DNA from: Nereocystis luetkeana | Taxonomy: Eukaryota > Sar > Phaeophyceae > Laminariales > Laminariaceae | Direction: 5' to 3' | NCBI GenBank assembly: GCA_031213475.1 | Contig: JARUPZ010000002.1 | Coordinates: 17,910,079 to 17,974,078 of the forward strand | Length of the DNA stretch: 64,000 nucleotides | Shown here: in pieces, positions 1,058 through 49,904 of the stretch | Position numbering within the stretch: the stretch's first letter is position 1 | How the letters are laid out: each line of letters begins with the position of its first letter | Notes under the pieces: generated by a model | Told to the model about the DNA's origin: nothing | Seen by the model: only the letters and a program-made list of their open reading frames with translations | Database searches by the model: none | Program-made: the position numbers and the translations under genes

Positions 1058-3561
1058 GACGGGGGACATGCGCGCGAACAGGACCATCGCGGCCTCATTT
1101 CCAGCAATATGGCGACCTTGCTTGACCTGCACAACGATGCGAGGTAAGCGCGCACCTCGCCTTCACTAGCATATTAGCAAATACAGAGGTGCGTTGAATC
1201 TGGTTGGCAGGCTTGACGGTCTCATCATGTAGAATTTTAATTGCGACTGAAATCAAGGCTAATCGAAGACCAGTCAGGTTAGTGGAGTCCTATCGATTTG
1301 TGCACTTGCGATAATAATGTGAGATATGTCATTATTACCAGAAAAGTGGCATGCAGCCAATCGCCATCAACACTACTCCCACACGAAAACCACCCCATCT
1401 CTCTCTCGCGTTCGGTCCCGCTTGAAGGTGCCTACACAAGGCAGACCCCCTGACATACAGCAACAAAGTGGCCACCTCTGCCCAGGTAAGACCACAGCGT
1501 TGTCTTCGTGTGATAGCGTGCAGAAACCAGCAGAAATCAGCGTGATTCGTATATTCCGGGGTCGTGTCGACTAGTAGGTGACGGCAAACATATACAGTAT
1601 ACCTGCATTCTGATACCGATTCGTACCTGGTTCGACACGCCATTTTTAGGCAGTTGCGTCCCAGGAACTCAGTTCCTGGTAGCTATAGTTGTGGCAGTAC
1701 GCGTTATGGTTGCCATATCGTTGATTTACCATACCACGAACTAACGCACACTCCTCTTGAGTAACGCCCCCCTAGGTAACGCCTCCCCTCCCCCACATGA
1801 GCACACCCGGTGATATAGGGTTTTGTCCGATTTTTATCGTCCCTACACTAGGGGTACGTTGAATACCACACCCCCCACGGAGGTGCGCCTCGAAGCAAAC
1901 TCAAGCTCGAATATTACCATACTACCTGGCGGATGCCATTTACCCACATTACTACTACTCCTACTTCTCCCACTGTGCCCCAAGCCCCAGCCACCGGCCC
2001 TAACATAATATTTGTCGCCCATCACAGAACTTGTCGCATGCCATTGTAGAACCTACGACTAAGGGAACGAAATGTTTTTCAGCGGGACAAAGCCATTTGA
2101 GGTGCGATATTCGGGAGTTTTGACGCCATTAGTTTCTTATGGCGGTGCCTATAACCGGAGCATACGGTGATTAGTGCTCTGGCGCCTGTTTCATGAAGTG
2201 CAACGAGAACTGGATACAGTCTAGCGGTCTCGCGCCGTAGACGTGTAGCCTCCTCACAGCCCCTGCCCCGGGGGTGCGATGGAGACAACACACGCAACGA
2301 TTCCGTGGTAAACGGCAGGACTGCACTACGCTTAACGGTCTTTATGTAGGCGATCTAACATCCCTGGGTCGATTCCTCCTATCATGCCTGTTGGTTGTTC
2401 GTCTGAAAACAGTCTCATGCTCAAGCTCTGTCAAAAGCTTGTGGAGGTCTTTTCCACAGCGCAAGAGAAGACCGCAGCGGCTATGGAGAGAACATCTACT
2501 TTTGCGCTGCCAAGGGATTGGCGAAGTGCTACACGCCCGAGAAGGCTATGAAAGGCCTATGTGAGATTTCGTCGTTCCCGATAGACGGCAATGGTTGCGC
2601 CATTACGTTCGCGAGTAGATGTCACCACTATCCAAGCCACGTAATTGTTCGAAGGCTATCATGTGGCGCGTTCACACAACTTCAAGCAGCGCAACCGAGC
2701 GTTGTGTTGCTCGCTGTGAATTAACTAGAAGGACCCCTACTGTAGTTATGATGAAGCCTTCGTTTCCAGGTTTGAAGCGATCACGTTGCTCCTGTCCGTC
2801 TGGTTTCCAGAAACATGCATATACAGTTATGTATTTGCGCTGGCGACCACTTTGCAAACCCACAGATGAAAACGAAGTGAATACGAACAGCGTGAAAGAG
2901 TACGGGGGGCACGCAACGCAAATCCTGTGGAAGTCGACCACACAGCTGGGCTGCGCGGAGGCAACTTGTACGAATGATTCGTGGAACTACTTCTACCTCG
3001 TGTGCCAGTACAACCCCACGTGAGTGGTAATGGTATGTTCTGGACCGTCATGGCATAAATCGGGATTTAGAAGGGTGATGTCGGAGGGGGAGGGGATTGG
3101 GGTCACGGTGGCGTTACTAAGTGCGCGCAGCAAGGCCCCGGGTTGAACAAGCAAAGCAGGGTGTCTTAGTGCTGCGACAACACCCGTTGCGTTCTGCTCG
3201 TGGGTGCGAGGGTGCAGCTTTTTGAGCAGTCGCCTGAATGTACATTCATTAAAATCTCGGACCAAATACGCCGAGCAGGGTGCCTCGGAACTGCAACAAC
3301 ATCCGCAGCGATATGGCCATGGGTGTGATAATCCAGCTACTTAAACAACAGATTCCCAGAAGCGGGACTTGAACACGCACACGGGCCGACAGCGGTGAGC
3401 GTCAACACACCGTGTCGCAAATTTTCCCTAACCTGTTCGGCCTCGTACCATGCGCCGCTCCGCCCCCGCTCTCGGCCATGACGTCTGCATTCAGCGGAAA
3501 CCTCAACTTGAGCACCATGCTAGAAACGGAGGTGAGCCTGCCGACCGGAAAGAACTGCTAA
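1058..3561 (+). CDS. CAP/SCP (PR-1-like) domain protein, five exons recognised, first exon not found
   Basis: CAP proteins are usually secreted, cysteine-rich defence or interaction proteins. The exons I can place are 1058-1143, 1428-1485, 2413-2560, 2866-3019 and 3495-3561, with stop TAA at 3559-3561. Together they give 513 bp, an exact multiple of three. Visible motifs are LLDLHNDAR at the domain start, SGYGENIYF, GGHATQILWKS and the signature YLVCQYNPTGNL. The last is formed only across the junction of the final two exons, which supports the splicing model. Donors are GTAAGC, GTAAGA, GTGAGA and GTGAGT; acceptors end in ACAG, AAG, ACAG, ACAG and TCAG. The three internal exons have the same lengths and phases as the complete paralogue at 30695-34536. 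The first exon with the signal peptide is unidentified, so whether the gene is expressed is uncertain. The 3' half lies inside segmental duplication copy A. Confidence 0.8.
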
Positions 3562-4051
3562 GACGAGGCAATATTGAATCTTCCACCCTTTGGCCCCGCC
3601 GGTGGAAGGGAGGGCGTCGGAGAAGTAGGCGTGGGCTAGTGGCTGACTGGAGATGGTAGTCGCGACGAATCAGGAAGCAAAACCTGGTCAGGAAGCCATG
3701 AAGCAAGAACACGTGGTGTATTTCAGAAGCAAGTTATGGGGCACTAGGTTTACGAGCGTACAGTAGATCGTACCAAGGTGATCGTACCAAGGTGTATACT
3801 TCCAACAGAGGGGTTCCATGCTGTAAACTTCAAACATGTTGTGGTGCAGGGTCGTTTTCGGCCCATGCGCTGTGCATACTCTCAAGCAGTATAGTAGGCT
3901 CGTTAAAGAGCAGGGATTCGAGCCCAGCTGAAACTTCCTTTTTTCGGTCGGTGAACGCAAGAGGGCTGCGAGGTTGCGAACTTCCATGATCATCGACGAT
4001 CAATGGCATTTTGATCCCGTTTATGGGGCAATAAACCAGGAAGCATACTAT

Positions 4052-4140
4052 GGGGATCGAGAAAGAAGGTGGGGATATACCGGGGGTCGAAAAAGAAGGC
4101 GGGAGTATACCGGGGATCGAAAAAGAAGACGGGAATAACT
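4052..4140. repeat. Tandem repeat, three units of about 30 bp
   Basis: Three consecutive units begin GGGGATCGAGAAAGAAGG or a close variant and end TATACC. The duplicate region in copy B lacks the array and has a G-rich stretch at the matching place. Confidence 0.8.
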
Positions 4141-4547
4141 GTGGCTTGTCCAGAAGGTCGCCAGTCGTAAAACGTCATGCGATATTCCCAGAGAACGGAA
4201 CGTCCTGCTCAAACCGATAAGCATCTTGCTCTACAGCACAGTAGAGTTTGGTCTGTTTGAATTCGTTCTGGAGTGCGTCTGGGCGCTGGTCCCTGTCTGT
4301 TTCGTTATATACAGGTATATATATACCAGTATATTATATATATACATGTTTGTATCGTCTGTTTAAGAACTGTGTAGGGAAGTATATTGAAATTTGGCTC
4401 CGGTCATACAGTCGCTCTGTCGAATGGCGGACGCCCGTCAACCTCGGAGTATGTCCCGGCATGGCATGTGTGTTGAAGACACTAGATGTGTGGTAAAACC
4501 GAACTACTCCTGTCTACCTAGGGAAAACAGGCCACAGCATTTAGGGC

Positions 4548-5115
4548 TCAGGGTTCACGTCTATTTAGGGACAAAGTGTTGTGCGCCGAGGCAATGCTTG
4601 AGTAGCTACATTGTAGGTTGTGCTGGTGAAGGATAAACGGATTGAGATAGCGAGTGGCACGTAAGGCGTTTTGTTCGACGAAGACACCGTTCACCTGGAC
4701 AATTGCACCGGCTGCTTTCTCTTCCATGTACGCGTTCATACTAGTTGTGTGAGAGCGGCATTGACGTTTGCCACCTGGCTCTGGTTGTGTGTTAGCGTTG
4801 CCGTGACTCGGTGTTCCGTCACCCGCGGGACTCGATCATGGCTTTGGATAGACGACGAATCAAGTATAACGATTCCCGTCTAACAAGAAACAATAGGCCA
4901 TAGCTAATATGAAAACCGTTTGGGCCGTGACAACGTCGGTATGAGTGATGTATGAGTAACGGTATGCGGTAGACTGTGACTCGCGCGGGGTTTCATTCGA
5001 CGAATTGATGTTCCCTCTTCTTAACTTCACGTCGAGGTTGGAACTTCTTCAGGCGGGCGCATGCTGGCAATTGCCGTCGTAGGTTCCGATATGAATTGGG
5101 GACCGCGTGGACTCA
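4548..5115 (-). pseudogene. Unknown ORF remnant shared with copy B (first block)
   Basis: Two minus-strand peptides are preserved in both duplication copies. One begins MNAYMEEKAAGA and is followed by a region ending near RYLNPFILHQHNLQ. The other ends KFQPRREVKKREHQFVE followed by a stop. Copy B has the same stop and mostly conservative changes, such as K to R and Q to N. Frames shift between the blocks and no family is recognised. It may be a decayed gene or a mobile-element remnant; coincidence in a diverged repeat is also possible. Confidence 0.3.
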
Positions 5116-5289
5116 ATCAAACCTTGTGACAGTGGCAGCCGATACCGTTTTGGGCCAGAACGGCGGGCTCCGAGAATGTCCAAAGCATCAGGAGTATAGC
5201 GACTTAGATCCTAAGAGTCCGGGTCTAGCCCGTCTATGCTGTATTAATATATATTTCTGCGCTGTGCCTTAATCTCCATGTGTTCACCA

Positions 5290-5850
5290 TGTTTCAGCAG
5301 CTGTCTGCCTCTACGTCCCCAAAATCATCAGGCTCCTTGCATTTGAGACGTCGCTTGGCCTGCACTTAGAGTGAGGACTGAATGCCTCGACAACTGGTTC
5401 GTACAAGCTTTCAGTCAACCTCAATTTTGCAGCGATAAAACAGCGTTGACTGAAATAGGTCAAAATAGACAGTCCGGATGATTAGCGAGACTTTGAACGT
5501 GATGACGGGCGCAACAACAGTGATGCACGGCGATGCGTGGTAGGCGGTAGATCGACAAGACATATCTCAACTCTTGTTTGGTTTGTACTTCGCCTCTGTC
5601 TCTCTTTTTAGGAGATGTTGAGTGAAACACTAGATTGATACTGTTGCATCTCGGGCGTCTCTGCAGGGGGGTGGTCCAGGCAGCCATCACGCACCTCTGT
5701 ATTTCATCCAGACGCCTCAGCACCGCAACTTCAACAACAAACGGCCTCCCGATAACTGCGTTATCGACAAAAATAAATACACCAACTACAAAAAGGCCGG
5801 AGCTTTGCTCGAACCAACGCACGAATCCCGACCACCGCCTTGCCATGGGC
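5290..5850 (-). pseudogene. Unknown ORF remnant shared with copy B (second block)
   Basis: The minus strand reads a peptide containing VAVLRRLDEIQRCVMAAWT. Copy B has the corresponding VAVLGRLDFVRRCVMAAWT at 43371-43592. Further downstream, frames containing the block KLVRTS are also shared. The conservation looks protein-like, but both copies carry frameshifts and the product is not recognised. Confidence 0.3.
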
Positions 5851-6306
5851 CAAGCCGTCTAATCACCGTGATCCTACCCAAAATTATCTGCCCTTCTTGG
5901 TTGTTATGTTGTCTTCAACACCAGCTACAGTTTGCAGTTCATTTTAATCATCCTGTACACGCATCTCCGGAAATATAATGTACCTGGTATTGCGTTTTTA
6001 GCCGATGGAATATTATCAGTTATATCCCCACTCAACTAATAGTGTCCTGTTTTTCTCTTCCTCGCCTCTATGGTCTGTCTCTTTACCCCCCCCCCTCCCC
6101 CCTCGTCATGCTCCGTCTCGGAATGGCTCCGGTGTCTGTGGTCAAATGGCTAAGCCAAGCAACTAATGAGTACCTCCGTCTTGGTGCCACTTTTTCTGTC
6201 AACACCCAGACCTAGCATTCAAGGTACGCCATAGGTGGGTTAGGACACATGGCATAAGGGGCGCTGCAGCGATATCCGTTAGCGTAGGGCACACATCAAG
6301 GCCTTC

Positions 6307-6409
6307 GCCTTAACCCCTTTAGAACCGCAGTCCCGTTTTGGGGAAAAACTACTTGAACATTGAGTGGTTTGTCCCCAAAACGGGACTGCGGTTCTAAAAG
6401 GATTAAGGC
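6307..6409. mobile_element. Foldback MITE with TTAA target-site duplication (piggyBac-like)
   Basis: The two arms (about 6314-6343 and 6372-6402) are near-perfect inverted copies containing TTTAGAACCGCAGTCCC, separated by about 28 bp. TTAA flanks both sides. The matching place in copy B (near 44032) has a single TTAA in otherwise alignable sequence, so copy B looks like the empty site. TTAA duplication and CCC-starting ends are typical of the piggyBac superfamily; assigning this element there is inference. A diverged relative lies at 32039-32132. Confidence 0.8.
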
Positions 6410-8133: not shown

Positions 8134-8408
8134 TGTGAAGATCACGGAGAGCGGGACACTTTGTATCCCTGGACAGGTCTGCCTGTTAAGCCGGCACTCG
8201 TTGGTACTCACGTTGATGTTCGCTTAGAGATAGAAGAGCCACTTTATTCCTTTCGTGCGCGACGGAGACTGGGGCCACGCTCGTGCCTCTCTGGAAAACC
8301 CCCGGTTTTCCACCTACGATACGCCTTCCAAGTACTACAAATACGATCCCCGTGCCGGAACCCATGGAATTACCGGGCTTTCAACCTCATACAAAGCAGT
8401 ACATAAGA
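8134..8408 (-). repeat. 3' LTR of element 1
   Basis: It is about 94% identical by eye to 22117-22392 and to the interrupted solo LTR at 49181-61119. Its outer end reads TGTGAAGATCACGG on the plus strand, where the other LTR has TGTTAAGATCACGG. Inside it lies a noncoding stretch (8409-9075) before the coding region, with a G10 run at about 8639. Confidence 0.85.
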
Positions 8409-9075: not shown

Positions 9076-9552
9076 CTAGCCAAGTGAATTTGGGGACACC
9101 AAGAGCCACGTACAGCTCTCGTCGAAGTCGTGTAGCGCGCCGGAGATCGAGGAAGCTTGATCGGTCCCGGGTCGTCCAAGAATCGAAATATATACTCCAT
9201 CCGTGGGCGTAGTCGCGCTGATTTTCCCGAGCCACCACAGCCCGTCGTCGCCCTTGTACCAAAAATGGGCCCCGTTGGGAATCACGGTGTTGCAGAATCG
9301 GCGGAGCCAGTCGGCGTGCGAGACGCAGCCATAGCCGGGTGCCAGAAACCGCTGGCCGTTATTCCGAGAGAGCTCCCGTTGTGCCGCGCCGATTCTCATT
9401 CGGCGGTACAGGCGGTTGGTTTGACGATGCTGGTTCGGGGTGCCGGCCCAGTAGCGCAAGATTGCTTGGCGAGAAAGCTGAAGGTCCATTTCCCGTTCCC
9501 AGGATGGACGGGAAAGTCCAGTCCAGTGCGTCTCGTACATCACTGACGCCAC
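9076..9552 (-). pseudogene. pol: Element 1 Pol C-terminus: tudor/SH3-like tail after a chromodomain-like segment
   Basis: This segment continues the integrase polyprotein in a shifted frame. It contains YWAGTPNQHRQTNRLYRRMR and HFWYKGDDGLWWLGKI. The equivalent part of element 2 is in frame with its integrase and has the order chromodomain-like block, RYWAGDPVQ, then a GSYIYFKTTHSGWQLARVV block. The tryptophan-rich strand pattern resembles tudor or SH3-like barrels, but this is a weak structural guess. Confidence 0.55.
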
Positions 9553-10369
9553 CTCGACCTGGAACCGATTGGTGTCCGGTAATCGTTTCCACTTCTAGTC
9601 GGTGAAGAGGTGTCGAGACGTCGTCCTGGGTGACGTGGTACGGGGGAGATTTCTTGGAGAAGCTGTTGAGCACGTACTGCGTCAACCCCGCCGGCAAATA
9701 CTTCGGCATGTCGCCACGGTCGTGGGGGTTGGCACAGAGCTTGCAGCGTTGACCTGAAACGCGCCGACGGGCATCCGCGCCGGGCATGTCGGAGGGGAGA
9801 TCTAAATACAGGAGCTTGGCCCCAAGAGGAGACCCGTCCGGGGTGTCCGCTGCGGAGCAGGGGCCAACTGCGAGAACTTTGTAGGGGTCTGTCCAGTTGA
9901 GTGAGAGTTTGGCCTTGAGGACCTTGGCGTCCGTGTCGGGTTTTGCCCCCTGGCGGATGGTGGCCGCCGTATTGTACACCCACGCCCAGCCGCCGACGTC
10001 AAACCTGGGGACCGGACGCAGAGCGTCGGCGAGGGCGGAGTTGCGGCGGTTCACACGGGCAACAGTGAGGGCGTGGTGTTCGCGAACGATAGCATACGCG
10101 CGCTGTTGGCGGTCCATCGCCAAGTCGCAATAGGCGAGGTGGTCGCGGGCCAAGCTTTGGTGGCCGGCGACGCCAGCACGCTCGAACATCGTGAGGGGGA
10201 GGCGTGGCAGCCGATCCATATGTACCTCGTTGGGAGCCAAGCCCGTGGCGGCACTGACCGAATTGTTGTACGCAAGTTCGACATGAGGGAACTGTTCATC
10301 CCAGTTGTTCTGGAGCTCGTTGACGACCATTGCCAGCATCTGCGCCATCGTGTGGTTGACACGTTCCAC
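9359..10369 (-). pseudogene. pol: Element 1 integrase C-terminal half
   Basis: The frame opens at the conserved catalytic-glutamate region (ERVNHTMAQML). It continues through GLAPNEVHMDRLPRLPLTMF to a GPY/F-like segment (NWTDPYKVLAVGP), a CXXC block (RCKLCANPHD) and VLNSFSKKSPPYHV. Almost every block has a counterpart in element 2. The frame is offset from the upstream integrase half, so a frameshift separates them near 10400-10460. Confidence 0.8.
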
Positions 10370-10459: not shown

Positions 10460-11134
10460 TTAGAGGCCGTTGCCCGAGAGGATGCTGCGCGGGCACCCCC
10501 AGAGAGGAATATACCGGTTGATGAGAATGTTATCCGTGCCCTCAGCGGTGAACTCTGCCCCAGTGACGGCGTACATGTCGGCTCGGCGGCTGAAACGATC
10601 AGTGAAAATCAAAATGTAGGTATTTCCTCGAGGAGTCACATGGAGGGGGCCGAAATAGTCGATGCTGACGGCGATGCCGGGCCTTTCTGGCAAGGGCAAT
10701 GTGATGATGGGCCACCGGACCGTCTGCCGCGACGTTTTCCGTGCCTGGTACTTCAAGCAGTGGCGTAGCCACCACCGGGTGCAGATGCTCATACCGATCC
10801 ACCAGTAGAAACGTTCGAGCATACGTAGGGTGCGCGCTGTTCCTAGGTGGCAGGAGGCCGTGGAATGGCAAGCCTGCATGACCCAAGGGCGCATGAGGAG
10901 CGGCACATAAATGCGGATAGGCTCGCCATTCAATAAACAGGCCGCACGACCCACCGGGCGTTGCGTGCCTGACGCAGGGGGGGGGGGGCGGCTGCCGGAC
11001 GAGTAGAACGATGCCCGCGTCGGTAGTGTGTAAACGGCCTTTGGTAGCCAGCTCCTGAACCTCCGAAAAAGGAGGGCGCTGGTGGGAAGGGAAACACGAC
11101 CAAAAGTCGGCCGGCAAAATTTCCGGCCGGCCAA
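10460..11134 (-). pseudogene. pol: Element 1 integrase N-terminal half, catalytic residue lost
   Basis: It shows LLMRPWVMQACHSTASCHLG, then FYWWIGMSICTRWWLRHC, then a core with SIDYFGPL and WGCPRSILSGNGL. In element 2 the corresponding core motif is LSDRGTEF, so the second catalytic aspartate has become glycine. The zinc-binding CXXC is CLKY here, against CYTC in element 2, so one zinc ligand is also lost. The integrase cannot be active as read. Confidence 0.85.
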
Positions 11135-12218
11135 GGGCTATGTAGCGCATGGTGGCGCTGCACGCGGGCTCGGCCTGTTGTTCCCGTGCCCATTCGGTGT
11201 GCGAATAGCGCTCTACAGAATCACCAAATTGAAAGTCGGCAGCTGCGCCGAGAGCGTCGAAGTCATTCGTGGGGACGGGCGGTTCGTCAGTTGGCAGCGG
11301 AAGCCGTAAAAGAGGGGTTGCCACGGGCTCGGCGCCGTCGCGGTCGGACGGGATGGGTACCATCGGGACCAACGAAGAGGCAGGAGCCGGGGTCAAAACG
11401 ACTGGCGCGGTCGGTCGCGGTCGTGGGGCTCGCGGCGGGGTGATAGCACGCCGGGCGGATGGTCTAGGGGCCCCGCTGGGCCCGAAGCCATAATCAATCG
11501 CAGGCGGCGCGGAGCCAGAGGCGGCGGCCGTTCGTCGGCGCGTCCGAGTGGGGATGCGGCCGGAAGACGGGAAAACGTGCGGGGGAGCCGGGGTGCCAGG
11601 CGTCGATGGGGTAGACGCGGCCGGATCAGTGCTCACAGCGGAACCTTCTCCCTGAATATTGCTCGTCTGGGGAGGAGCGCGCTGGGCGACAATCGCCGCT
11701 GCAGCGGGGGCATTTGCATTGGCCAGGTCTGGAGGGGCAGATGCGGCCGGAGCAGTGCTCCCGGCGGAATCTTGTCCCTGTAAAGTGCTCGTCGGGGGAG
11801 CAGCGCGCTGGGCGACAGTCGTCGCTGCAGCGGGGGCTTCTGCATTGCCCTGGCCACAAGGGACTGACGCTGCCGGAGCAGTGCTGACGGCGGAATCATC
11901 GCCCTGTAAAGTGCTCGTCGGGGGAGGAGCGTGCTGGGCGACAATCGTCGCTGCAGCGGGGGCTTCTGCATAGCCCTGGTCGCCCCCGGAGGGTACGACG
12001 AAAACCAAAGCGAAAGCGGTGTTGGCGGCAGGTGAAAAAAACCGCAAGCCAGGACGGCGATCGACGGTGGCGACGGAAGCAGAGGCACGAGCGACGAATC
12101 TCCCAAAAGGAGCAGAGAGGTCGTCAATCCTCATACGTGGCCCGTGTGTGCGAAAATCGCGAAAATCCGAAGAGGTGAAAGGCAGCCCACCCAAGACGGC
12201 ACGTTCGAGGCGGGGCAC
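10599..12218 (-). pseudogene. pol: Element 1 spacer between RNase H and integrase, alanine/proline-rich
   Basis: The region opens with a non-repetitive part, followed by three units of about 40 aa (120 bp; roughly 11640-11975). Each unit contains variants of AAATIVAQRAPPPTSTLQG. After the repeats come proline-rich sequence and a block reading YSHTEWAREQQAEPACSATMRYIALG before the integrase. Frames change within the segment. No catalytic motif is present in the spacer. Element 2 instead has an acidic non-repetitive linker here. Confidence 0.65.
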
Positions 12219-12369: not shown

Positions 12370-12815
12370 AAATCAGCATTGCCGTTGGCGGTGCCCTTGC
12401 GGTACTCGAGGGTGTAGTCGAACGCTGTGAGGAACTCGAGCCACCGCTAAACTCGCGCGTTGTAATCCCCTACATTGGCGATGCTCTCAAGTGCCTTGTG
12501 GTCCGAAAAGATGCGAAACTTTGTCCCCCATAGGTAGCCGCCGAGTCGGTTGATAGCCCAGAAAATGCTGCGCGCTTCGAGGTCCAACGGGGTTCAGGGT
12601 CTCTCGGAATCGAGAGTAGCGCGGCTGATATAAGCAATGGGCCGTACCGAGCCGTCCAGATGTTTTTGTTCAAGCGCGCCCCCGAAACCGTCGATGCAGG
12701 CGTCACAGTACAAGCGAAAGGGGCGGGAGTCGTCGGCTACAGCGTCCCAGTCCGGGAAGACCAAGATTGGTGGGGCAGCGAGCTCGGCGAGGATCTGGCG
12801 AACGATAAATTCCAC
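12370..12815 (-). pseudogene. pol: Element 1 RNase H domain, frameshifted
   Basis: The N-terminal part reads PFRLYCDACIDGFGGALEQK and then PIAYISRATL. After a frame change, the other reading gives FRIFSDHKALESIANVGDYN and then an in-frame stop near 12447. Downstream, DYTLEYRKGTANGNADFLSR matches the RNase H end of element 2 (YTLEYRPGKVNGNADLMSR). The ribonuclease is interrupted at least twice. Confidence 0.75.
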
Positions 12816-12905: not shown

Positions 12906-15137
12906 TTATCCCACGCCGCCCATCAATGCTCGGACCTGCTTGAGGTTCTTGGGCATGGGCATTTTCAACAAACCCGAAAAGTTTTCCGCATTGGGGCGTA
13001 TACCCGCAGGCGAAATGGAGTGGTCCAGAATTTTAGCGTCCGTGGCACCGAGGCGAGCCTTCGAGGGGGAGAGCTTGATGTTGTGTTTGCGCAGGCGTTC
13101 GAAAAGGGCTCGTATCGTCTTGACGTGGGCCGTCGGATCAGAGTCGAAAACGATCACATCATCGAGGTAGGCCGCCACCTGTGCCAGGCCTTTGATGACT
13201 TCGTTAATGGCTTTGACGAACCAGCCGGGCGAAGCACTGCTGCCTTGGGGCATTACGATCCACTCGTAGAGTCCCGTAGGAGTGCAAAATGCCGTGAGGG
13301 GGACGGTGTCTTTGTGCGCCGTAATTTGGTGGAACGAGGAGACCAAATCGAAGAGAGAAAACACCCGTCCCTTCCCCAGGGAGTCGAGAACTTGATCCAC
13401 GCGAGGAATAGGCAGCTGGCTGAGGTTGCTGATCTGGTTGAGTTTCTTGTAGTTCCCTGTGATCCAAACGCCTCCCGACTTCTTCGGGATGACCACCAGC
13501 GGGCTCGAGTACGGAGAGGTCGAGTGCTGGATCAGACCCGCCGCTAGATACTGATCCAAGGTGGCCTCCACTTCCTCGGCCAGGATGGGGTTGATGCGGT
13601 GCGGCCTGGACGTGACGGGAGGGCTTCCTTCCGGGGCCGAAATCACGAAACGTATCAACGAGCAGGAACCAAAATCAGATTTGGACTTCAAGAATACGTC
13701 CGGAAAATCGCAGAGAACATCTCCCAGTTGTTCGATGGTCTCAGGGGTCCAGTCCGTGCCATGAAGGTCAAACGCCACCTCCCGCAGATGCAGCGGCAAA
13801 CGTGCCCAGACGCCCAGGAACGAAACGCGCTGTGCTAGGCTCAAACGCTCAAGCAGTGCAGGCGAAGGAGAGCTCGGAGCTGCGAGGGGGGAAGTTGAAA
13901 CTGGCGAGACCGGAGCCACCTCAGATAATCCTGACGGAGGGCTGGGGGCTCGGTTGTTCTGATGCAAAACGTCCCGTGGAACGCTCAACAGTGGGGCGTG
14001 GGCGACGCCGAGGATATCTCCAGGCTTGAGGGCCGCCACGCCAACGAGGGGAAGAACCTGTCGCCCGGAGGCGACGAAGTGCTGCTCAGCCGAGGGCAGG
14101 TCGGGCTGAGGTATCATGTCGACCAAGTAGTGCCCAGTGAGTGCCGGGGAGCCATCGCTTCGAACCAAATTAACCACAAGGAGTTGAGCATCGTCAGACA
14201 GGGTGACGCCTGTCGCGCCCTCGTAGCGGAGATGGAAGCCTCCACCCGAAGCGGCGGGGTCGATGGCGTACACGGACATGCCTGTCGGGGTGTGGTGAAG
14301 CAACTCCAACTCGACAAAAACGCGATTGTCTGACGGCCGGGGTGGGAGAGAGCGATAGGAGCGGCTATTAAAACGCATCCAGCTGTCACGTCCCAGCAGT
14401 ACTGCATGCTGCATCACTGAGGGGGAAACCACGCAGGCCCAAACTGCGAGGGAGCACGTAGGCTCATTTTCTCGAAATAATTGAACGCTCAGGCGCACTC
14501 TCGTCGATGTCTTTAGAGGGGTTGATTCGCCAAACCCCCCCCAGGAACGAGAGGAGCATTTCTCCTCGCACGCGATGGACGCAGCACCAACCGTGAGCAT
14601 GCGATCCAAAACAACTTGCCGAATGAAGGTCTTTGGGGAGCCAGTGTCAAGAAGCGCCACGCAGCCAAAAGGTGCAAGAACGCCAGCTCCGCTGTGGATC
14701 GCGATTTTGGTTGTAACAGAGGCGTCGTCGAGGGTAATGGTGCCCTCGACGAGGCAGGGGCCATGTTCTGGCAGCGCGAGGGAGGGGTCGACACTAGGTG
14801 CGACAGCCAAAACCTTGGGGCTGTGATCAGCCGGCGCTTCAGAAAAATAGGTCGAAAACTCCAAGGGAGGACCTAGGCAAGCGCGGGCCACGGGCAACGG
14901 GCCAGGCGGCGCTGGGGAAATCTCATGTATTCTGTCAGTCGTGGTTGGAGTGCACAATGGATGAGAAGAGGCGGGGGGTGCCAACCCGGCCTCACTTGAG
15001 CGGAGGGTGTCGCGAACGGCGGAAAGAGCTTTCCCGAGCAGATTTTTGCCACGCCACCGAGAGGGGTCTTGAGCCTCGGGGTCATCTTCCCGGAGACCGG
15101 TGCCCCACACGGAGTCAAAAGGGCTGGCTTCAGCCAA
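12906..15137 (-). CDS. pol: Element 1 open frame: NADAR C-terminus, aspartic protease and reverse transcriptase
   Basis: This 743-codon frame is the longest intact piece of element 1. Residues 1-46 are the end of the NADAR domain (SPFDSVWGTGL, GKNLLGKALSAVRDTL). A linker follows. The retropepsin motif LLDTGSPKTF is at about residues 162-171 and its closing block LLGRDSW about 95 residues later, in one frame. The reverse transcriptase then shows VVIPKKSGGVW, LFDLVSSFHQI, MPQGSSASPGWF and the catalytic YLDD. The frame ends in the RT connection (MPMPKNLKQVRALMG). Element 2 has the same protease-RT order but no NADAR piece. Confidence 0.88.
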   Translation of the reverse strand: MAEASPFDSVWGTGLREDDPEAQDPSRWRGKNLLGKALSAVRDTLRSSEAGLAPPASSHPLCTPTTTDRIHEISPAPPGPLPVARACLGPPLEFSTYFSEAPADHSPKVLAVAPSVDPSLALPEHGPCLVEGTITLDDASVTTKIAIHSGAGVLAPFGCVALLDTGSPKTFIRQVVLDRMLTVGAASIACEEKCSSRSWGGFGESTPLKTSTRVRLSVQLFRENEPTCSLAVWACVVSPSVMQHAVLLGRDSWMRFNSRSYRSLPPRPSDNRVFVELELLHHTPTGMSVYAIDPAASGGGFHLRYEGATGVTLSDDAQLLVVNLVRSDGSPALTGHYLVDMIPQPDLPSAEQHFVASGRQVLPLVGVAALKPGDILGVAHAPLLSVPRDVLHQNNRAPSPPSGLSEVAPVSPVSTSPLAAPSSPSPALLERLSLAQRVSFLGVWARLPLHLREVAFDLHGTDWTPETIEQLGDVLCDFPDVFLKSKSDFGSCSLIRFVISAPEGSPPVTSRPHRINPILAEEVEATLDQYLAAGLIQHSTSPYSSPLVVIPKKSGGVWITGNYKKLNQISNLSQLPIPRVDQVLDSLGKGRVFSLFDLVSSFHQITAHKDTVPLTAFCTPTGLYEWIVMPQGSSASPGWFVKAINEVIKGLAQVAAYLDDVIVFDSDPTAHVKTIRALFERLRKHNIKLSPSKARLGATDAKILDHSISPAGIRPNAENFSGLLKMPMPKNLKQVRALMGGVG

Positions 15138-15456
15138 AACATTTGTTGCCAGTGCTCAATAGGTGCTGCTCCATGACCGGGGTCTGCGTGAATTTGGCAA
15201 AGGAACCAGCAAGGGCGGCGTCTTCCCGAACGCGGTCCCAAGTAGCGCAGTCGAAGTTATGCACGCCTCGACCGAGGCGTTTCTGTTCGCGAGGGTCTGG
15301 CGAGGCCATAATCCGCTCCGCTGTGTCGTGGTCCAGAAAAAGGCGAGCCTTTTCAGCCATCATGTACTGCTCCGCGCAGGAATATGTCCCCTCGCCAATG
15401 ACAAAAACCGAGGGGGACCACTGCGAAAAATAGGAGGGGGGCTGCCAGAAAAGTAC
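15000..15456 (-). pseudogene. NADAR (YbiA/DUF1768-like) domain inside element 1, split by one extra base
   Basis: NADAR domains are N-glycosidases. Known members act on riboflavin-pathway intermediates, and some remove ADP-ribose from nucleic acid bases. The minus-strand frame 15130-15951 contains FWQPPSYFSQWSP, VIGEGTYSCAEQYMMAEKA, DPREQKRLGRGV, FAKFTQTP and LLSTGNK. The next frame (from 15137) continues with LAEASPFDSVWGTGL, DPSRWRGKNLLGKAL and AVRDTL. Together these cover the family from start to end, in order. The break falls between STGNK and LAEAS and is explained by a single extra T. The domain lies after the Gag zinc knuckle and before the protease. Element 2 has no counterpart at this position. 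Assignment rests on motif order seen by eye. Confidence 0.85.
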
Positions 15457-16820
15457 CGCCCGCTCCGTTGAATACTCGAGAGTAGGGTCAAAGACCGAAG
15501 GTGTCGAGTCGTCGGTGGCCGCCGTTGCGGTGTGTGTTTGGGGAAGTGTGCTTCTCTGAGAACACTGAGCCCCTGGTGCACGAGGCGAGTCAGGCTCCAC
15601 GTATACTGGCTCAGTGTCATCATTGCCCGTGGGCAAAAAATCGCCAGAAGGTTCTCTTACTGCGCCCGATGATCCCTGTCCTGGACCAAAGGGGGCAGGG
15701 GGCTCTGAGCCCGTTCTGCTTGACGAGAGCTGCGATTCTTCCGAATTTAACGGGTATGCAGTCCGGTTGATCTGACCGGAGGCTGTGGAGTCACCACTGG
15801 CTCGACGGGCAGTACCAGGCTTTTCCTGTTCCACTGGAGCCGAAGGAGCGCGGCGCACGTGGAGTGGTGTGCGCGAAGACGAAAGAGGGCCTGCAGACCC
15901 TGTAGATGACTTCAAGAACGGTGCTCCGGTGGGGGGCAACAAAGGGTCCACCGGAGAGGGCTTTCGTCCTGTAGACCTGGTGGGGAAGGGGTACGAGGTA
16001 GCTAATCTTGTCGACTCTTCCTTAACAGGAAAAATGATTGGACGGCCACCGTTATTGCGAGGAAACGCCTAGTCGAGCTTCAACCGACATCTCGGGGTTT
16101 TGGTGTTTGCCTTCCCGCACCTCAAACCGACCGCCACCGCATGGCCGGGAGGTGAAAGAAGGGGACACTCTCGCTGAAAAGAACGACGCGACGGCGCGAC
16201 ACGCGTGGTGCCGTGCGGTGCATGGTTCGGGAGAGGGGCGTTTATCTCGCCTGCTCTCGTGCCCAGGGTGAGGGGAACGGCGTTCGAGGCGCGGGCTCCC
16301 GACGTCGGCGAACACGCCCGGAGACTCCGCGGTAGAACCGGTGGAGCACAGTCGCTGCGTCGGTCCGAAGTACGGAGCAACGTGCGGGAGTGGGGCGGCG
16401 CTGGACGACGCTGAGTGCTGAGCGAGCCTGGGACGCGTGTATCTTGTGAAATCAATGTATTTTCTCCCGGCAATGCTGGCGGCGGGCGGGCAGGAGGAGC
16501 CGAACCGCCGTCGACCTGTCAGTTACCGGCGCGGAAGGTGCCCGGATGGCGTCCGTTGGGGTTACCGTCCGAATTATGCGAGGCACCGTAGCGAACCCCC
16601 GAAGCGGGAGCCGCGGTGGAAGAGGCAGAGTTGGTCAAACCACCACCGTGGTAGCCGGAGTTAGACTGTTGGTGCCCTCGCTCCACGTGTGTGTTGTAGC
16701 CGCCACCTTGTCTGTGGCCCTGGCCGTGATGCTGTCCACGCGAATGGCCTGAACGTCGCCTGTTTTTCTTGTGGTTGTTCCTGTTCAGCCGTGAGTTATT
16801 TTCGCGGCGGTGTCGGTTCA
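15457..16820 (-). pseudogene. Element 1 linker between Gag and NADAR, low complexity
   Basis: The part just before the NADAR domain (15457-15951) is rich in Ser, Pro, Thr and Gly and shares an open frame with it. Further upstream on the minus strand, 16519-16821 reads an Arg/Asn/Gly/His-rich peptide (for example GQHHGQGHRQGGGYNTHVER). This resembles the Gly/His/Arg-rich segment in element 2 Gag. The stretch 15952-16518 shows nothing I can identify. Confidence 0.5.
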
Positions 16821-16824
16821 TGCG

Positions 16825-17397
16825 TTATTGCCAACGACAAAACGCCGCGCCGTCGTCGCCGAGAGTTCCGACGTCGGGGTGGAGAATACCGCTGAGGTTT
16901 TGAAAGGGATGCCTACACTGTCTGAGGGAGTGTGAGTCTTCGTGGCAGTTCAAACAGCGGCCTCGGGTTTCGCTGAGGGCGGCCGCGCGGGCGGACGATG
17001 AAAGTAGACCGCTCCAGAGAGGGGGGTCCTCGGTCTGGATGGGCATGCAAACAGCGTGAATTTCAGCATAGTGGTGTTCTTCTAGGGACCAGCAGTTGAA
17101 AGCGGTGTCAAGCCACGGGTCGAGGCAGTCAGGGATAGATTTGTGGACGTTCATCACAAGCGGATTATTGCGCAACCCCGTCTGCCAAACAGGCGACTGG
17201 GGAAGCGTCCGGCCCTGGCCGCGACCATTACTGGCGGGCCGGGGCCCCGACGGGGTGGATGACCGCACACTCGTCGAAGAAGCAGGCAAAGAAAAATATG
17301 TTTCGCCGTTGATGGCAAGCGTCTTATTATTCGCGAGAGTCTCAAAAGCCAGCCACATGGCGTCCAAAGTACCAAACGGCCTCGACACGGTAGCCAA
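16825..17397 (-). pseudogene. gag: Element 1 Gag C-terminus with CCHC zinc knuckle
   Basis: The 190-codon frame contains CLNCHEDSHSLRQC, a CX2CX4HX4C nucleic-acid-binding knuckle. It is followed by FQNLSGILHPDVGTLGDDG. Element 2 Gag has CMNCGHENHFAREC followed by FLNRSNLIHPAVGDGTPQE, clearly the same protein end. The frame differs from the capsid frame upstream, so a frameshift lies near 17400. Confidence 0.85.
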
Positions 17398-19946
17398 ACT
17401 CCCGGGTACAGCGTGGGCACCAAGCTGGGGAACTGCTCGTTCACCGCCATCCGAACAACCTCCAATACAACCTCCACCCCCGGAGCCAAAACACGCTCAG
17501 TCCCCGTCGCTGCCGACACCACTCCACGAAAAGCACGGCTAAAACCGCAAAAGGGGGTCCCGTTAGGTACGCCAAAATTATGCAACTTGGTGTAGCTGGC
17601 CCCCGTGTCGGTGCGATCGTAGTGGTTGCTCAGCAGCCTCAGGAGGAGCGTGAACGCTTTCGGTCCCGTCGATCCAGCTGCGAGGGCGCGCGACACCTGC
17701 CCAAAACAATCATCCATCAAGGTAGTGAGGGGGGCGGTCGTCGGCCTGTCAGGTGCGATGGCGCGCGCGAAGGATTTCTTGAGGGGGTACTCCCAACCGG
17801 GGATCCAATCGGTAGAACTGAGGCCTTCGTGGCTGCCATCGTTGCACATCATGAGAATATCAGACGTGGAGGCCTTAACCGAACGAGTGAGTTGTTGCGC
17901 GGCGTCAGAAGGGTTGATCGAGGAGGGAAAAAGTAGAACAGAAATGCGTGAAATATACTTCAGTCCCAGGTGTTTGTACGCCCGTTGGACGTCTGTGTGC
18001 TTTTTCGCGGTGGCGGCGGCGGCGGCGTCGATCGCCGCCGTGCGAGCGTGGGCAAGGTGAGACGACACGGGCATGGCGCGGTCCTCGTACATAGTCAGGC
18101 GACCAAGAAGCGCGGCGGACGAAGCAACTTCCGCCAGCGAGGGAACCACTTGCCTGTTGGAACCGGTGGTGACTTCGGGAACGGGGCTTTCGCCGCCGCC
18201 GTCCGTGCAGGACCTCGAAGAGTTGGCCTGAGACGCGTCTCCCCGCGGGTGGTAGCTCCAATTTCGCCCGTCGCTCGAGCTGTCCTTCCCCTGGCCCCGG
18301 TTACGCCGCCGACCAGCCCCGTTTCGCCGGAACGTGCTCCTGCAATGGTCTGAACCCTGTCCGCGGCGGGCCTTGCCGTCTTGGCCTGTCGAGGCTCCCC
18401 CCGTGGTTGGACGCCAGCGGTCCCGGGCGTCATCGCGGCGGTAGGGGTGGTCACGGGCCCCAGAGCCGTCGGGGACTCCCAGGTGTTGGTGCCCCGGGGG
18501 CCGGTGAGTCCTGTCGTCCGAGAGGGGGTTGGAGAGGGCGTGGGCCTGACCCGAGCCCTGTCCGACGTCCGGGAGCCGTTGTCCCTGGGCGCCGAGGTCC
18601 GCCCGGCGCTTGCAGTGGCGCCCATACTCCGTCGGGGTCGGCCAAAAAACGGTAGCGGAGCACAAATCGTGCGCCTGCCGCAGGCTTTTCACGAGGGCCA
18701 TGGTGTGCTCCCGGCGTTGCTGGCCCTTCCAGCTGTCACCCGCCATGACAAGCCAAGCGTCGTGGACGGAGAGGTCGTCCTCGGGCATGTCCAGTCGGAG
18801 CTCGCGAGCAGCAGAGACCACCTTCGAAGCCGCCTCCAAGGGGAAGCATGAATTTGGGGCAGCGGCCATGCAGGCGGCACTCCCCTGAAAGAAATCCAGA
18901 TCTTCGGTACGCTCGATCCGGGCGTCGACCGCGATGGCGCTAGGAGGGAGCGTGGCGAAAAAGTCAAAACCGGGGGCTGGAGTGGCGGTTGTCGCGGTCT
19001 CGGCATAGGGAAGGCACTCCCCTGAGTGTCTCGTCTCGGCAACACGACGGGGCTTCGTGCTGCTGTCCGCCCGCGCCGCCCGCAGAGCTTCCCTGGCGCG
19101 GGATATGGAGGCCTGGGCGCGGGAGGCGGAGCGTGCGGCGTCCTCCGAGGCCACGGCGGCCTCCTTCGAAGAGTTGTATGCGGCCTCCGAAGCAGTGGTA
19201 GCGTCGGCGTCGGTGCCAGCGGCCGCTGATGCCACAGTCTCGGCCTCCGTGAGCGCCTGCGCCCGGCGGCGGGCGGTTTCCGCCGAGGTCGCTCCGAGGG
19301 TCTCGGCGGCTGTCAAGGCCCGTTCTGCCGCCGCGATATCGGGGTGACCATCGGCTGCAGCAAGAGGCCGCTCGGCTGCGGCAGCATCGGCCCGAGCTGG
19401 GGTCGAGCATTGGGCCATGGTTCCCCCGCCGAGGTCCGGGACGTCCGATCAGCGCCGGATGAGGGCCGCCTGAGCCTCGGCCGAGAGGGAGGTCCAGGCC
19501 TCTGGTAGTTGAGAGGGCGGGGCTTGATCCCCGTCCTGCGCTATCTCCCTAGTGGCGCCTTGCTTCGTCGTCCCCTCCTCGTCCTCGGAACTACGGGCCT
19601 CGTAGTCCATCGCGTCGTCCAAATCTGCCCGGCCCGGGCGCTGGGGTGTACGCTCTCCCGAGGAGGGAGAGGAGCCGTAAGTCCTCAGGCCACTGGCAAA
19701 CCTGGCGGGGCTGGGGGACTCCTCCCTTGCCTTTGGTGTCCGAGGCATGCTGAGTCGGGCGGTGAGTCGGGGACGGGCGAAACACATCGAGGCAGGGGAG
19801 GGCACCGGGGCAGGGGGGGACACCGGGGCCGGGGGGGGCGGCATTCGGGGGAACTTAGGGTTGTATAACGAAGGAGCGGCGGCGGCAGTATCCGCGGCTC
19901 GTGCTGCAGCAACTTGTCTAGCGCTGATGAGGGCATGGCGAGCCAT
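17154..19946 (-). pseudogene. gag: Element 1 Gag matrix/capsid region
   Basis: The frames 19449-19946 and 17154-19418 are in the same phase, separated by an in-frame TGA at 19449-19451. The C-terminal third resembles the element 2 capsid: STDWIPGWEYPLKKSFARAI corresponds to VLWTPGWEMCLQRHILRSI, and FGVPNGTPFCGF to LVVPAGTPFSKY. The N-terminal part is alanine-rich with a likely coiled coil. A central stretch reads Arg/Gly-rich nonsense, probably an out-of-frame segment between compensating indels. Confidence 0.7.
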
Positions 19947-22017
19947 TCGGCGAGCACTACGAGCGCTTGAGGAGTCAGCTTCGGCCCGAGAAGGTAGCGC
20001 GATAGATATGCGGTTGTCACAGGGTGTACGTGTACTAACATCCAGCGTGTTTGGTGCAGGTACTTCGCCGGTACTGGGGGGGGGGTGTCATAAGCATCGT
20101 CCCTTCCAACAGCAGTAATATTTTTTTCCTCAGCACATTTTCCAGCAGAATCAGCGCGGGTCGCTACAGCAGCGGGTATGGTAGGCGCTATACTGAACTC
20201 CACGATGCCTTCTTGTGGGCGGGGCGCAGGAAAATTTACACGAGCGGCCGTCTCGCTCCCTCTAGCAGCAGTTTCAAAACTCGCAGCATTACTGTAGGTT
20301 CCAGCGGAATCGGCGTGGGTGGCTACGGCAGAGGAAAAAGCAGGTGCACCACTGAAATGTACTGTGCCGTGTTGTGGGCGAGGCGTGGGAAAAATTTCAC
20401 GAGCGGCCATGTCGCTCCCTTCAACAGCAGCACCAAAACGCGCAGCCGTACTGGAATTTTCAGCAGAAACGGCGCGGGTGGGTATAGCAGCAGGCAACGC
20501 AGACGCAATACTGAAATGCAGTGTGCCGTCTTGAGGGCGAGGCGTGGGAAAAAACTCACGAGCGACCATGTCGCTCCCGTCAACAGCAACATCAAAACTC
20601 GCAGCCGTACTGGAAGTTTCAGCAGAAACGGCGCGGGTGGGCACAGCAGCAGGCAACGCAGGCTCAAGACGGAAATGCAGTGTGCCGTCTTGTGGGCGAG
20701 GCGTGGGAAAAATTCACGAGCGACCATGTCGCTCCCTTCAACAGCAGCATCAAAACTCGCAGCCGTACAGGACTTTTCAGCAGAAACGGCGCGGGTGGGC
20801 ACAGCAGCAGGCAATGCAGGCGCAATACTAAGATGCAGTGTGCCGTCTTGTGGGCGAGGCGTGGGGAAAAAATCACGAGCGACCATGTCGCTCCCTCTAA
20901 CAGCAGCATCAAACCTCGCAGCCGTACTGGGATTTTCAGCAGAAACGGCGCGGGTGGGCACAGCAGCATGCAATGCAGGCGCAATACCTAACTCCAGTGT
21001 GCCGTCATGTGAGCGAGGCGTGGGAGAATCTTCACAAGCGACCATTAAGGAAGTAGACTCAATACTAAAATCCTGCGTGCCGTCTTGTGGGCGAGGCGCG
21101 GGAAAAATCTCCCGAGCGGCCGCATCTCCCTCTCTAACAGCAGTATTAAAACGCCCGGCTGTACGGAATTTCCACGCGGAATCGTCGTTTGCATCTACAG
21201 CTGTGAGGGAAGCGGGCTCAACATTGAAATCCAGTGTGTCATCGTGTGGTACGGGCACGGAAAAAATCGCATCGTGCGCTCGCGTTGTGGGAAAAAATTA
21301 ACGAGAGGCAGCATCGCTCGCGGCTATCCTACGCGTACGAGCGAGGTCGGGCAGCAGTGGAATCGTGCGAGGCGGAAAAACAGTCGCAATAACTCTCTCA
21401 TCTGGCCCAGGAGCACGTAGATCCGATGGCGAAGAGCGCAGTTGGCAGGCGTGAAAAACGCTACGTCCAGGTTCGTCCGACACTCTCCTGTCCAGAGCAG
21501 AAGCAGCTGACCCCACGCCCTCAGCGGAGCCAGGTGACTTGGACGGTAGATGGCACGAGTGGGGAATCAAAACTGCAAAGCCCAAGGCCTGGCCGCTTAC
21601 ACACGCCACGCTCTCCGAAGGGTCCGACGCTCTCCGGCCCAGAGCGGAAGAAGCTGGCTCAACGCTCTCAGTGGAGCCAGGTGGCTTGGACGGCAGATCT
21701 CGTCCCGGCGAGCGAGAAGGCTCGGAAAAGGTCTTGAACGAGGTCCGTCTGCCGGAAGCTGCTCGAGATTCGCCAAGGGGCCCCAGCCCTGGGTCTTCGG
21801 ACGGGCGAGTTGTACAAGGCGCGCGATCCACGTCGTCATCACGGGGCTCCTGCCGAGACACACGCTCCGTATGGTGGTTTGTTGTACAAGGCGCTCGATC
21901 TCCATCGACGAGCCTTGGGCGGTGGGGCACTAGGTGGCTCTGGGCCTCAGAGGCTCGTCCACCACGAGGGGAAGCAGACCCTCCCTCCCCGTGAGTCTCC
22001 ATCGTGCAGCGGAGCAA
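19685..22017 (-). pseudogene. gag: Element 1 Gag N-terminal extension with about 52-residue tandem repeats
   Basis: The first frame (21298-22017) starts about 100 bp inside the 5' LTR, as expected for a retroelement leader and Gag start. Downstream, 20140-21290 is a tandem array of about seven or eight units of 155-161 bp. On the minus strand a unit reads variants of AVPTRAVSAEKSSTAASF and AREFFPTPRPQDGTLHFS. Because unit lengths are not all multiples of three, the frame changes along the array. Long plus-strand frames over the same DNA are antisense readings of a stop-poor repeat. Confidence 0.65.
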
Positions 22018-22116: not shown

Positions 22117-22392
22117 TGTTAAGATCACGGAGAGCGGGACACTTTGTATCCCTGGACAGGTCTGCCTATTAAGCCGGCACTCGTTGGTACTCACGTTAAT
22201 GTTCGCTTAGAGATAGAAGAGCCACTTTATTCCTTTCGTGCACGACGGAGACTGGGGCCACGCTCGTGCCTCTCTGGAAAACCCCTGGTTTTCCACCTAA
22301 GATACGCCTTCCAAGTACTACAAATACGATCCCAGCGCCAGAACCCAGGTAATTGCCGGGCTTTCAACTTCATACAAAGCAGTATCATAACA
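22117..22392 (-). repeat. 5' LTR of element 1
   Basis: In element orientation it begins TGTTATGATACTGC and ends GTGATCTTAACA, so it has TGTTA/TAACA inverted ends. I see no clean TGG-type primer-binding site directly inside it, perhaps through decay. The outer flank continues as segmental copy A from 22393. Confidence 0.88.
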
Positions 22393-42830: not shown

Positions 42831-42969
42831 CCAACAGGCATTGGGCCTGTACTTCATGCTTCGAATAAATCCAAGGCACCAAGATTTTAGAGACTCAGAT
42901 CCCAAGGGCCCGAGTACAGCCTATGTACGCTGAATTGATGGTATTTTGCACTGCACTTTATCCCCGGTT

Positions 42970-49872: not shown

Positions 49873-49904
49873 GACTTTGTATCTCTCCTCGACTCGACCG
49901 GACC

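What the first reader, a model, noticed from the sequence alone, without database searches (positions are those of the whole stretch)
15000..15456. NADAR domain built into a Ty3/gypsy retrotransposon between Gag and protease
The sequence shows a full set of NADAR motifs in order (TYSCAEQYMMAEKA, REQKRLGR, STGNK, SPFDSVWGTGL, GKNLLGKAL). They are in the retroelement polyprotein, with the protease and RT in the same open frame as the domain's C-terminus. Known NADAR proteins are N-glycosidases; some remove ADP-ribose from nucleic acid bases and others act on riboflavin intermediates. An LTR element carrying one could be countering host ADP-ribosylation of its nucleic acid, or using NAD-linked chemistry during replication. 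That role is inference. The related element 2 lacks the domain, so it looks like a lineage-specific gain.
Basis: partly seen in the sequence, partly recalled or inferred. Interest (0 to 1): 0.88.

Follow-up and report, generated by a model that had tools for sequence, protein, structure and literature searches.

The report
NADAR enzyme domain inside algal retrotransposons
A jumping-gene family common in this alga-like genome carries, between its capsid and its protease, an enzyme domain known elsewhere for removing ADP-ribose from DNA bases; the same arrangement was published for the brown alga Ectocarpus in 2025, so it is real and curious but not new.

Summary
On the minus strand, 15000-15450 encodes a NADAR domain (PF08719) between a Gag zinc-knuckle motif and a protease motif of a 14.3-kb LTR retrotransposon (LTRs 8134-8406 and 22117-22390). 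Here the domain is split over two frames near 15142-15155, so this copy is broken. It is no chance capture: all 150 scored matches (of 778 candidates) in the 465 Mb genome exceed the Pfam cut-off, and 47 of 150 lie in stop-free frames of at least 2000 aa. Five NADAR types were seen; the four compared are 45-58% alike. The ADP-ribose-binding and catalytic residues of the solved Phytophthora NADAR are kept in 59-62 of 62 distinct stop-free sequences. It is already in print: PMC12477816 reports an Ectocarpus Gypsy lineage whose families all carry a YbiA-family NADAR at the N-terminus of Pol. Added here: a second genome, active-site retention, differing NADAR and RT histories (suggested, not shown), and stop codons at the Gag/NADAR border in 7 of 91 places. 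The likeliest role is an active glycohydrolase in the virus-like particle that removes ADP-ribose from the element's nucleic acid; that is inferred from homology and untested.

The parts
22117..22390 (-). 5' LTR of element 1
   Evidence: 274-column alignment at 94.9% to 8134-8406; K2P 0.049
20070..21163 (-). 159-nt tandem repeats in long minus-strand frames upstream of Gag
   Evidence: spacings 159, 159, 317, 159; ORFs 19685-20713(-) and 20323-21297(-)
16825..19448 (-). Gag region, named by position (ORFs 17154-19448 and 16825-17496), in more than one frame
   Evidence: no Pfam Gag match
16915..16956 (-). CCHC zinc-knuckle motif (CX2CX4HX4C)
   Evidence: pattern only; no Pfam zinc-knuckle hit
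15142..15450 (-). NADAR N-terminal part, profile 2-117
   Evidence: PF08719 96.5 bits, residues 207-309 of ORF 15130-16068(-)
15000..15143 (-). NADAR C-terminal part, profile 117-163, in another frame
   Evidence: PF08719 50.7 bits, residues 5-52 of ORF 12906-15155(-)
14637..14654 (-). aspartic protease motif LLDTGS
   Evidence: motif only; no Pfam protease hit
13038..13487 (-). reverse transcriptase RVT_1, YLDD at 13158-13169
   Evidence: PF00078 79.7 bits; motif
12600..12803 (-). RNase H (partial)
   Evidence: PF17919 42.2 bits, PF17917 35.7 bits
11608..11985 (-). 126-nt tandem repeats between RNase H and integrase
10733..10906 (-). integrase H2C2 zinc-binding domain
   Evidence: PF17921 43.5 bits
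10469..10687 (-). integrase core (rve), below the Pfam cut-off
   Evidence: PF00665 16.3 bits against cut-off 32.6
8134..8406 (-). 3' LTR of element 1

Best explanation
The window holds an old, broken copy of a Ty3/Gypsy-type LTR retrotransposon lineage in which a YbiA-family NADAR domain is a standard part, placed between Gag and the protease, at the N-terminal end of Pol. SHOWN: the order Gag / NADAR / protease motif / RT / RNase H / integrase, high copy number, several diverged NADAR types, and retention of the ADP-ribose-binding and catalytic residues. INFERRED: the domain is an active glycohydrolase made with Gag-Pol, packaged in the virus-like particle, that cleaves N-glycosidic ADP-ribose adducts (guanine-linked in the tested relatives) from the element's RNA or cDNA, and so keeps the template readable when host ADP-ribosyltransferases act.
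For: Architecture in the window and in Pol proteins from other sequences. Genome: 150 scored of 778 candidates, 150 of 150 over the cut-off, 47 of 150 in stop-free frames of at least 2000 aa. Family A: 31 protease-region rows examined (those of the first 39 that start within 13 residues of the query start): 16 have a NADAR match just upstream (12, 4 more), 1 is the window's split copy, 5 of 5 fetched also carry it (one only weakly), 9 were not looked at. Active site, 62 distinct stop-free sequences: E43 61, K50 62, R79 60, W89 62, R93 61, E125 59, D130 61, W133 62. The roles of these residues, and guanine-ADP-ribose hydrolysis by the YbiA-subfamily NADAR of Phytophthora, come from passages of PMC11543638. 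NADAR pN/pS is below 1 in the two families tested (0.50, CI 0.36-0.72; 0.43, CI 0.26-0.81).
Against: No activity was measured. The genome copies were chosen by Pfam score, which favours conserved ones, and copies with stops were left out of the 62. NADAR pN/pS is not clearly lower than that of its flanks (share of bootstraps with NADAR as high: 0.26, 0.60 and 0.23; 0.048 for one flank). In 11 of 27 Pol rows from other sequences R93 is C. No DarT match in this genome; PARP gave one match of 50 of 199 positions; both searches ignore introns. The NCBIfam model that fits best names a riboflavin-intermediate N-glycosidase. Particle packaging is assumed from the position next to Gag.
Confidence: 0.45

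Rival explanations
1. The domain acts on small molecules, as E. coli YbiA does on riboflavin-pathway intermediates, or on free ADP-ribose derivatives, and serves the element by house-cleaning or by blunting an NAD-based alarm signal.
For: TIGR02464 (riboflavin biosynthesis intermediates N-glycosidase) scores 150-158 bits against cut-off 73.7 in five of five unbroken domains given. PMC9503650 argues that phage NADARs mainly counter small diffusible ADP-ribose derivatives (passages).
Against: TIGR02464 names a broad family and does not test the substrate. At the positions of Phytophthora R93, K75 and Y84, E. coli YbiA has K, A and P; the genome's element domains have R (61 of 62), K (53 of 62) and F (60 of 62). 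A metabolic enzyme has no obvious need to be fused to Pol.
Confidence: 0.2
2. The domain works without catalysis, as a nucleic-acid or RNP binding module or spacer between Gag and protease that helps packaging or handling of the element RNA.
For: Position next to the Gag zinc-knuckle motif. PMC9303266 (search listing only) concerns a nematode trans-splicing protein and holds 'NADAR domain' 25 times. PMC12477816 suggests processing of RNA intermediates.
Against: E125 and E43 are kept in 59 and 61 of 62 distinct sequences of types 45-58% alike, which binding alone would not need.
Confidence: 0.2
3. The domain is a tolerated passenger captured from a bacterial or algal gene, and looks conserved only because copies are young.
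For: Family C copies are young (median NADAR dS 0.03). The flanks show similar pN/pS. Copies were chosen by Pfam score.
Against: Active-site retention over types that are about half identical, and in most of 27 Pol rows from other sequences, needs long purifying selection. Between types dS is saturated or 0.98 and above, while dN is 0.36-0.58.
Confidence: 0.1

Closest known systems
NADAR-bearing Gypsy lineage of Ectocarpus (e.g. Gypsy-12_Ec32), PMC12477816
   Same: [quoted passage not shown] blastp hits outside Ectocarpus almost exclusively bacterial (passages, section 5 part 1 of 2). Ectocarpus proteins with NADAR plus RT were found here as relatives.
   Different: Another genome; family A is old and broken; five NADAR types; stop codons at the Gag/NADAR border in some family C copies. 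I could not compare with the Gypsy-12_Ec32 sequence itself, and the supplements were not read.
Phytophthora nicotianae NADAR, PDB 8BAU (PMC11543638)
   Same: YbiA-subfamily domain with the catalytic Glu; best solved match (E 1.3e-27 with the element-domain profile A1); the eight ligand-site residues checked are nearly all shared.
   Different: Not part of a retroelement; has an insertion within the fold (passages); only profile positions 7-121 align in the best stretch.
E. coli YbiA, PDB 2B3W
   Same: Same family and same catalytic Glu; second solved match (E 5.1e-14).
   Different: Differs at the R93, K75 and Y84 positions; known for riboflavin intermediates (PMC11543638 passages).
Ectocarpus Esi0017_0056, a stress-induced protein with DUF1768 (= NADAR), PMC7922944
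   Same: YbiA-like NADAR in a brown alga, thought there to come from bacteria by lateral transfer followed by duplication (passages).
   Different: Described there as a 391-aa protein; the term searches 'retro' and 'transpos' gave no occurrence in that paper. Its relation to the elements was not tested here.
Tx1 LINE ORF1 NADAR of Crassostrea gigas
   Same: NADAR inside a retrotransposon protein (PMC12477816 section).
   Different: LINE ORF1, not LTR Pol; called divergent there; not examined here.

Membership tests
Ty3/Gypsy LTR retrotransposon | Two direct LTRs flanking the body | tested here: met
   8134-8406 and 22117-22390, 94.9%
Ty3/Gypsy LTR retrotransposon | RT and RNase H upstream of integrase | tested here: met
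   order on the minus strand; rve is below its cut-off in the window, H2C2 above
Ty3/Gypsy LTR retrotransposon | Protease and CCHC Gag | tested here: inconclusive
   motifs only; no Pfam hits
Ty3/Gypsy LTR retrotransposon | Target-site duplication | tested here: inconclusive
   15-nt flanks printed; no clear duplication seen by eye
Ty3/Gypsy LTR retrotransposon | Primer-binding site and polypurine tract | not tested
   bases next to the LTRs were printed but not compared with tRNAs
NADAR superfamily (PF08719) | Profile match over the curated cut-off | tested here: met
   96.5 and 50.7 bits for the two parts in the window; up to 179.3 bits in genome copies
NADAR superfamily (PF08719) | Conserved fold | tested here: inconclusive
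   model of P0001, a database protein that groups with family B: mean pLDDT 84, 128 of 201 residues at 90 or more; fold comparison was switched off
YbiA subfamily | Catalytic glutamate in the last strand (not Asp or His) | tested here: met
   E at the E125 position in 59 of 62 genome sequences (K in 3) and 26 of 27 Pol rows (1 gap); definition from PMC11125620 section 7
DarT1-associated NADAR (BC4488) | Catalytic aspartate and DarT partner | tested here: not met
   Glu instead of Asp; no DarT match in the genome
Ectocarpus NADAR-Gypsy lineage | Gypsy RT clade with NADAR at the Pol N-terminus | tested here: met
   RT tree: own families A-D lie in one starred clade (SH-aLRT 96, 56 rows) with NADAR-bearing Ectocarpus proteins such as P0146 and P0154; E was not in that tree

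The most novel reading that the evidence does not exclude
NADAR is a fast-evolving or repeatedly replaced weapon of these elements in an arms race over ADP-ribosylation of nucleic acids in brown algae: families C and D share 87% of their RT but only 51% of their NADAR, and their NADARs do not group with those of A and B. This would point to an undiscovered algal ADP-ribosylation defence against retroelements.
Probability: 0.15. Interest if true: 0.85.

Novelty: new member of a known kind. Interest (0 to 1): 0.42.

Why it matters
A retroelement lineage that has kept an apparently active NAD-linked glycohydrolase over large divergence is a natural handle on whether eukaryotes such as brown algae use ADP-ribosylation of nucleic acids against mobile elements. 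The phenomenon itself is published. What this case adds is a testable prediction (an active domain) and a sign that the domain changes faster than, or independently of, the polymerase that carries it.

Tried and rejected
Chance insertion of a host gene at one locus: rejected. A free-standing host donor gene in this genome: a search with a free-standing Scytosiphon NADAR (P0007) gave 150 scored of 865 candidates; the best-scoring row has 56% identity, no row more than 57%, and the first rows are family A places already known, so no close host orthologue was seen. An intron-split or outranked gene would be missed.

Single origin of all retroelement NADARs: not rejected by the AU test (p 0.16), yet 0% of 200 bootstrap trees show one clade and the tree needs 3 changes. 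That group of 33 rows includes 4 database rows (P0001, P0018, P0024, P0093) that I added because they grouped with the elements; without them the quick tree needed 6 changes. NADARs of own families A-E as one clade (13 rows, with P0001, P0093 and P0170 added): rejected, p 0.0025. A-D on 22 matched rows: rejected, p 0.003. The same A-D group on RT-RNase H: not rejected, p 0.27, though the free RT-RNase H tree does not show it; the quick RT tree has a fork of 15 rows with A-D at SH-aLRT 91. So replacement is suggested, not shown; faster NADAR evolution in C and D fits too. Between I dropped 7 rows (bac_L109, vir_L120, vir_L116 as long; two identical viral and two near-identical bacterial rows).

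NADAR as more constrained than its neighbours: one search suggested it, the codon bootstrap did not bear it out in general. Chromodomain in frame 9076-9594(-): no Pfam match. Rfam on the window: no match at gathering threshold. Bacterial and viral neighbourhoods: ORFs of two loci listed, not pursued. Phage relatives: 690 records match a free-standing algal NADAR, all under 60% identity; not pursued. The Tpt1/KptA search never ran.
Full report
OBSERVATION. The NADAR call is right. On the minus strand of the window, PF08719 matches at 15142-15450 (profile 2-117, 96.5 bits) and 15000-15143 (profile 117-163, 50.7 bits); the curated cut-off is 35.1. The two parts are in different frames, so this copy of the domain is broken, as is the rest of the element (RNase H and integrase lie in further frames).

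THE ELEMENT. LTRs at 8134-8406 and 22117-22390 (94.9% over 274 columns; K2P 0.049) bound a 14.3-kb element read on the minus strand: 159-nt tandem repeats in long frames, a Gag region with one CCHC motif, NADAR, an LLDTGS protease motif, RT with YLDD, RNase H, 126-nt tandem repeats, H2C2 and an integrase core below its cut-off. Gag is named by position. Element 2 (49239-60898) has identical LTRs and no NADAR match; it sits inside a solo LTR of element 1's family, whose two pieces flank it.

GENOME. The 465 Mb genome gave 778 first-look NADAR candidates, of which 150 were scored, all over the cut-off; 47 of 150 lie in stop-free frames of at least 2000 aa (counted from its table; rows on small contigs may be assembly duplicates). 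I held 100 loci (8, 92); 99 gave a usable domain (one clipped locus, L010, was dropped). Eight pairs cover the same place, leaving 91 places; there are 81 distinct DNA sequences. They were sorted into types A (window's type, 19 distinct), B (5), C (55), D (1) and E (1). NADAR identity between the A, B, C and D domains compared is 45-58%. For family A, the protease region next to NADAR found 150 scored of 1316 candidates. I examined 31 rows, those of the first 39 that start within 13 residues of the query start: 12 have a NADAR from the list just upstream, 4 more have one in the list, 1 is the window's split copy, and 5 further rows were fetched and all 5 have NADAR upstream, one only at 35% over 86 residues. 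The other 9 were not looked at.

ACTIVE SITE. Residues that bind or act on ADP-ribose in the Phytophthora NADAR 8BAU (E43, K50, R79, W89, R93, E125, D130, W133; PMC11543638, passages) are present in 61, 62, 60, 62, 61, 59, 61 and 62 of 62 distinct stop-free sequences; over all 99 loci, stops and duplicates included, they are present in 98, 99, 97, 99, 98, 95, 98 and 99. K75, which there lies near the site without touching the distal ribose, is K in 53 of 62. In 27 Pol proteins from other sequences the same positions hold except R93, which is R in 16 and C in 11, and gaps at E43 (4) and E125 (1). The copies were picked by Pfam score, so decayed ones are under-represented. TIGR02464 is over its cut-off in the five unbroken domains given and in the window's N-part. 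P0001, a database protein that groups with family B, models well over the domain (mean pLDDT 84; block means 80 to 97 over residues 1-160); fold comparison was not available.

SELECTION. pN/pS of NADAR is 0.50 (CI 0.36-0.72, 17 sequences) in A and 0.43 (CI 0.26-0.81, 49 sequences) in C, below 1 but overlapping the flanks (A 0.59 with 11 and 0.46 with 4 sequences; C 0.62 with 30 and 0.77 with 45); only C against its downstream flank is near significance, 0.048 of bootstraps. Pairs are not independent. Between types dS is saturated in 6 of 10 pairs and 0.98-1.88 in the other 4, with dN 0.36-0.58.

HISTORY. A search with a 1167-aa piece of a family C ORF, from just after NADAR to beyond RNase H, gave 98 proteins; 38 show a NADAR by my profile, 37 of them over 30 bits. 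Many of the other 60 begin inside Pol: of 80 rows in the RT tree, 41 have too little sequence upstream to judge. In that tree the 27 NADAR-bearing rows all lie in one starred clade of 56 rows (SH-aLRT 96), with 26 unjudged rows and 3 that reach far upstream without a NADAR over 30 bits (gene models, which may be misjoined). P0140, P0148 and then element 2, on a long branch, are its nearest outside rows. NADAR trees put C, D and E apart from A and B. A clade of all retroelement NADARs is not rejected (p 0.16) but appears in 0% of 200 bootstrap trees; one clade of A-E (p 0.0025) or of A-D (p 0.003) is rejected, while RT-RNase H does not reject A-D (p 0.27). C and D share 87% of RT but 51% of NADAR; two pairs with like RT identity share 66-69% of NADAR (P0129/P0154 and P0124/P0125). 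The best-scoring matches outside the elements for A-E have 53-60% identity; for C and D these are as good as, or better than, the best other element family, whereas A, B and E have a closer element relative (the outside set may hold unrecognised element fragments). So exchange of the domain, or faster change of it in C and D, is open.

BORDER. In family C, 7 of the 91 places have an in-frame stop codon (TAG in six, TGA in one) right at the first residues of NADAR, in two neighbouring sequence contexts. Five of the seven lie in open frames of 2054-2055 aa, the other two of 1299 and 1457. In the one such locus looked at closely, a 373-aa open frame precedes the stop in the same frame. This recalls elements that make Pol by stop readthrough (recalled, untested); repeated decay is the alternative. 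I name no change that would alter it.

PRINT. PMC12477816 (Genome Biology 2025; [quoted passage not shown] That covers the finding's core. PMC7922944 (passages) describes an Ectocarpus stress-induced protein with a DUF1768/NADAR domain. Searches run: NADAR+retrotransposon, NADAR domain, DUF1768, YbiA+retro, brown alga+gypsy+NADAR, in an open-licence library only. In those listings and in the parts read I saw no report of active-site retention in, or of NADAR/RT conflict among, these elements; the supplements were not read, so this is no claim that none exists.

FUNCTION. Main reading: an active glycohydrolase of the Gag-Pol product that removes ADP-ribose from nucleic-acid bases. It rests on family chemistry, not on a test here. 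Host writers: no DarT candidate; PARP one match over the cut-off, 50 of 199 positions, 33.1 bits, of 6 candidates; both searches ignore introns. PMC4441479 (search listing only) is titled as showing that ZAP, a member of the PARP family (recalled), restricts human retrotransposition, so a link between that family and retroelements has precedent in animals. Rivals are listed with their confidence.

VERDICT. Real, widespread in this genome, and already described for Ectocarpus; interest moderate.

Noticed in passing
window 49183-61119: Element 2 (identical 616-nt LTRs, 49239-60898) is inserted in a solo LTR of element 1's family; the two LTR pieces overlap by 6 nt, as a target duplication would give.
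   Followed up: yes
family C loci L014, L019, L075, L076, L083, L084, L090: Stop codons of two kinds at the same place at the Gag/NADAR border, in two sequence contexts, with open frames of 2054-2055 aa in five of the seven.
   Followed up: partly
window 20070-21163 and 11608-11985: Tandem repeats with periods of 159 and 126 nt, multiples of three, in long open frames: the element seems to code for repetitive protein segments before Gag and between RNase H and integrase.
   Followed up: no
P0002, P0005, P0007, P0016: NADAR proteins of Ectocarpus, Scytosiphon and Pylaiella carry an N-terminal Cys/His-rich stretch, with no Pfam match besides NADAR in the one tested, P0002. Family A and B elements share a short D.T.EY segment before the domain with them.
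   Followed up: partly
P0221: A 2912-aa database protein listed with PF02481 (DprA, name recalled) and NADAR.
   Followed up: no
window 2753-6313 and 40534-44036: Two long stretches 74-77% alike in the same orientation, about 38 kb apart.
   Followed up: no
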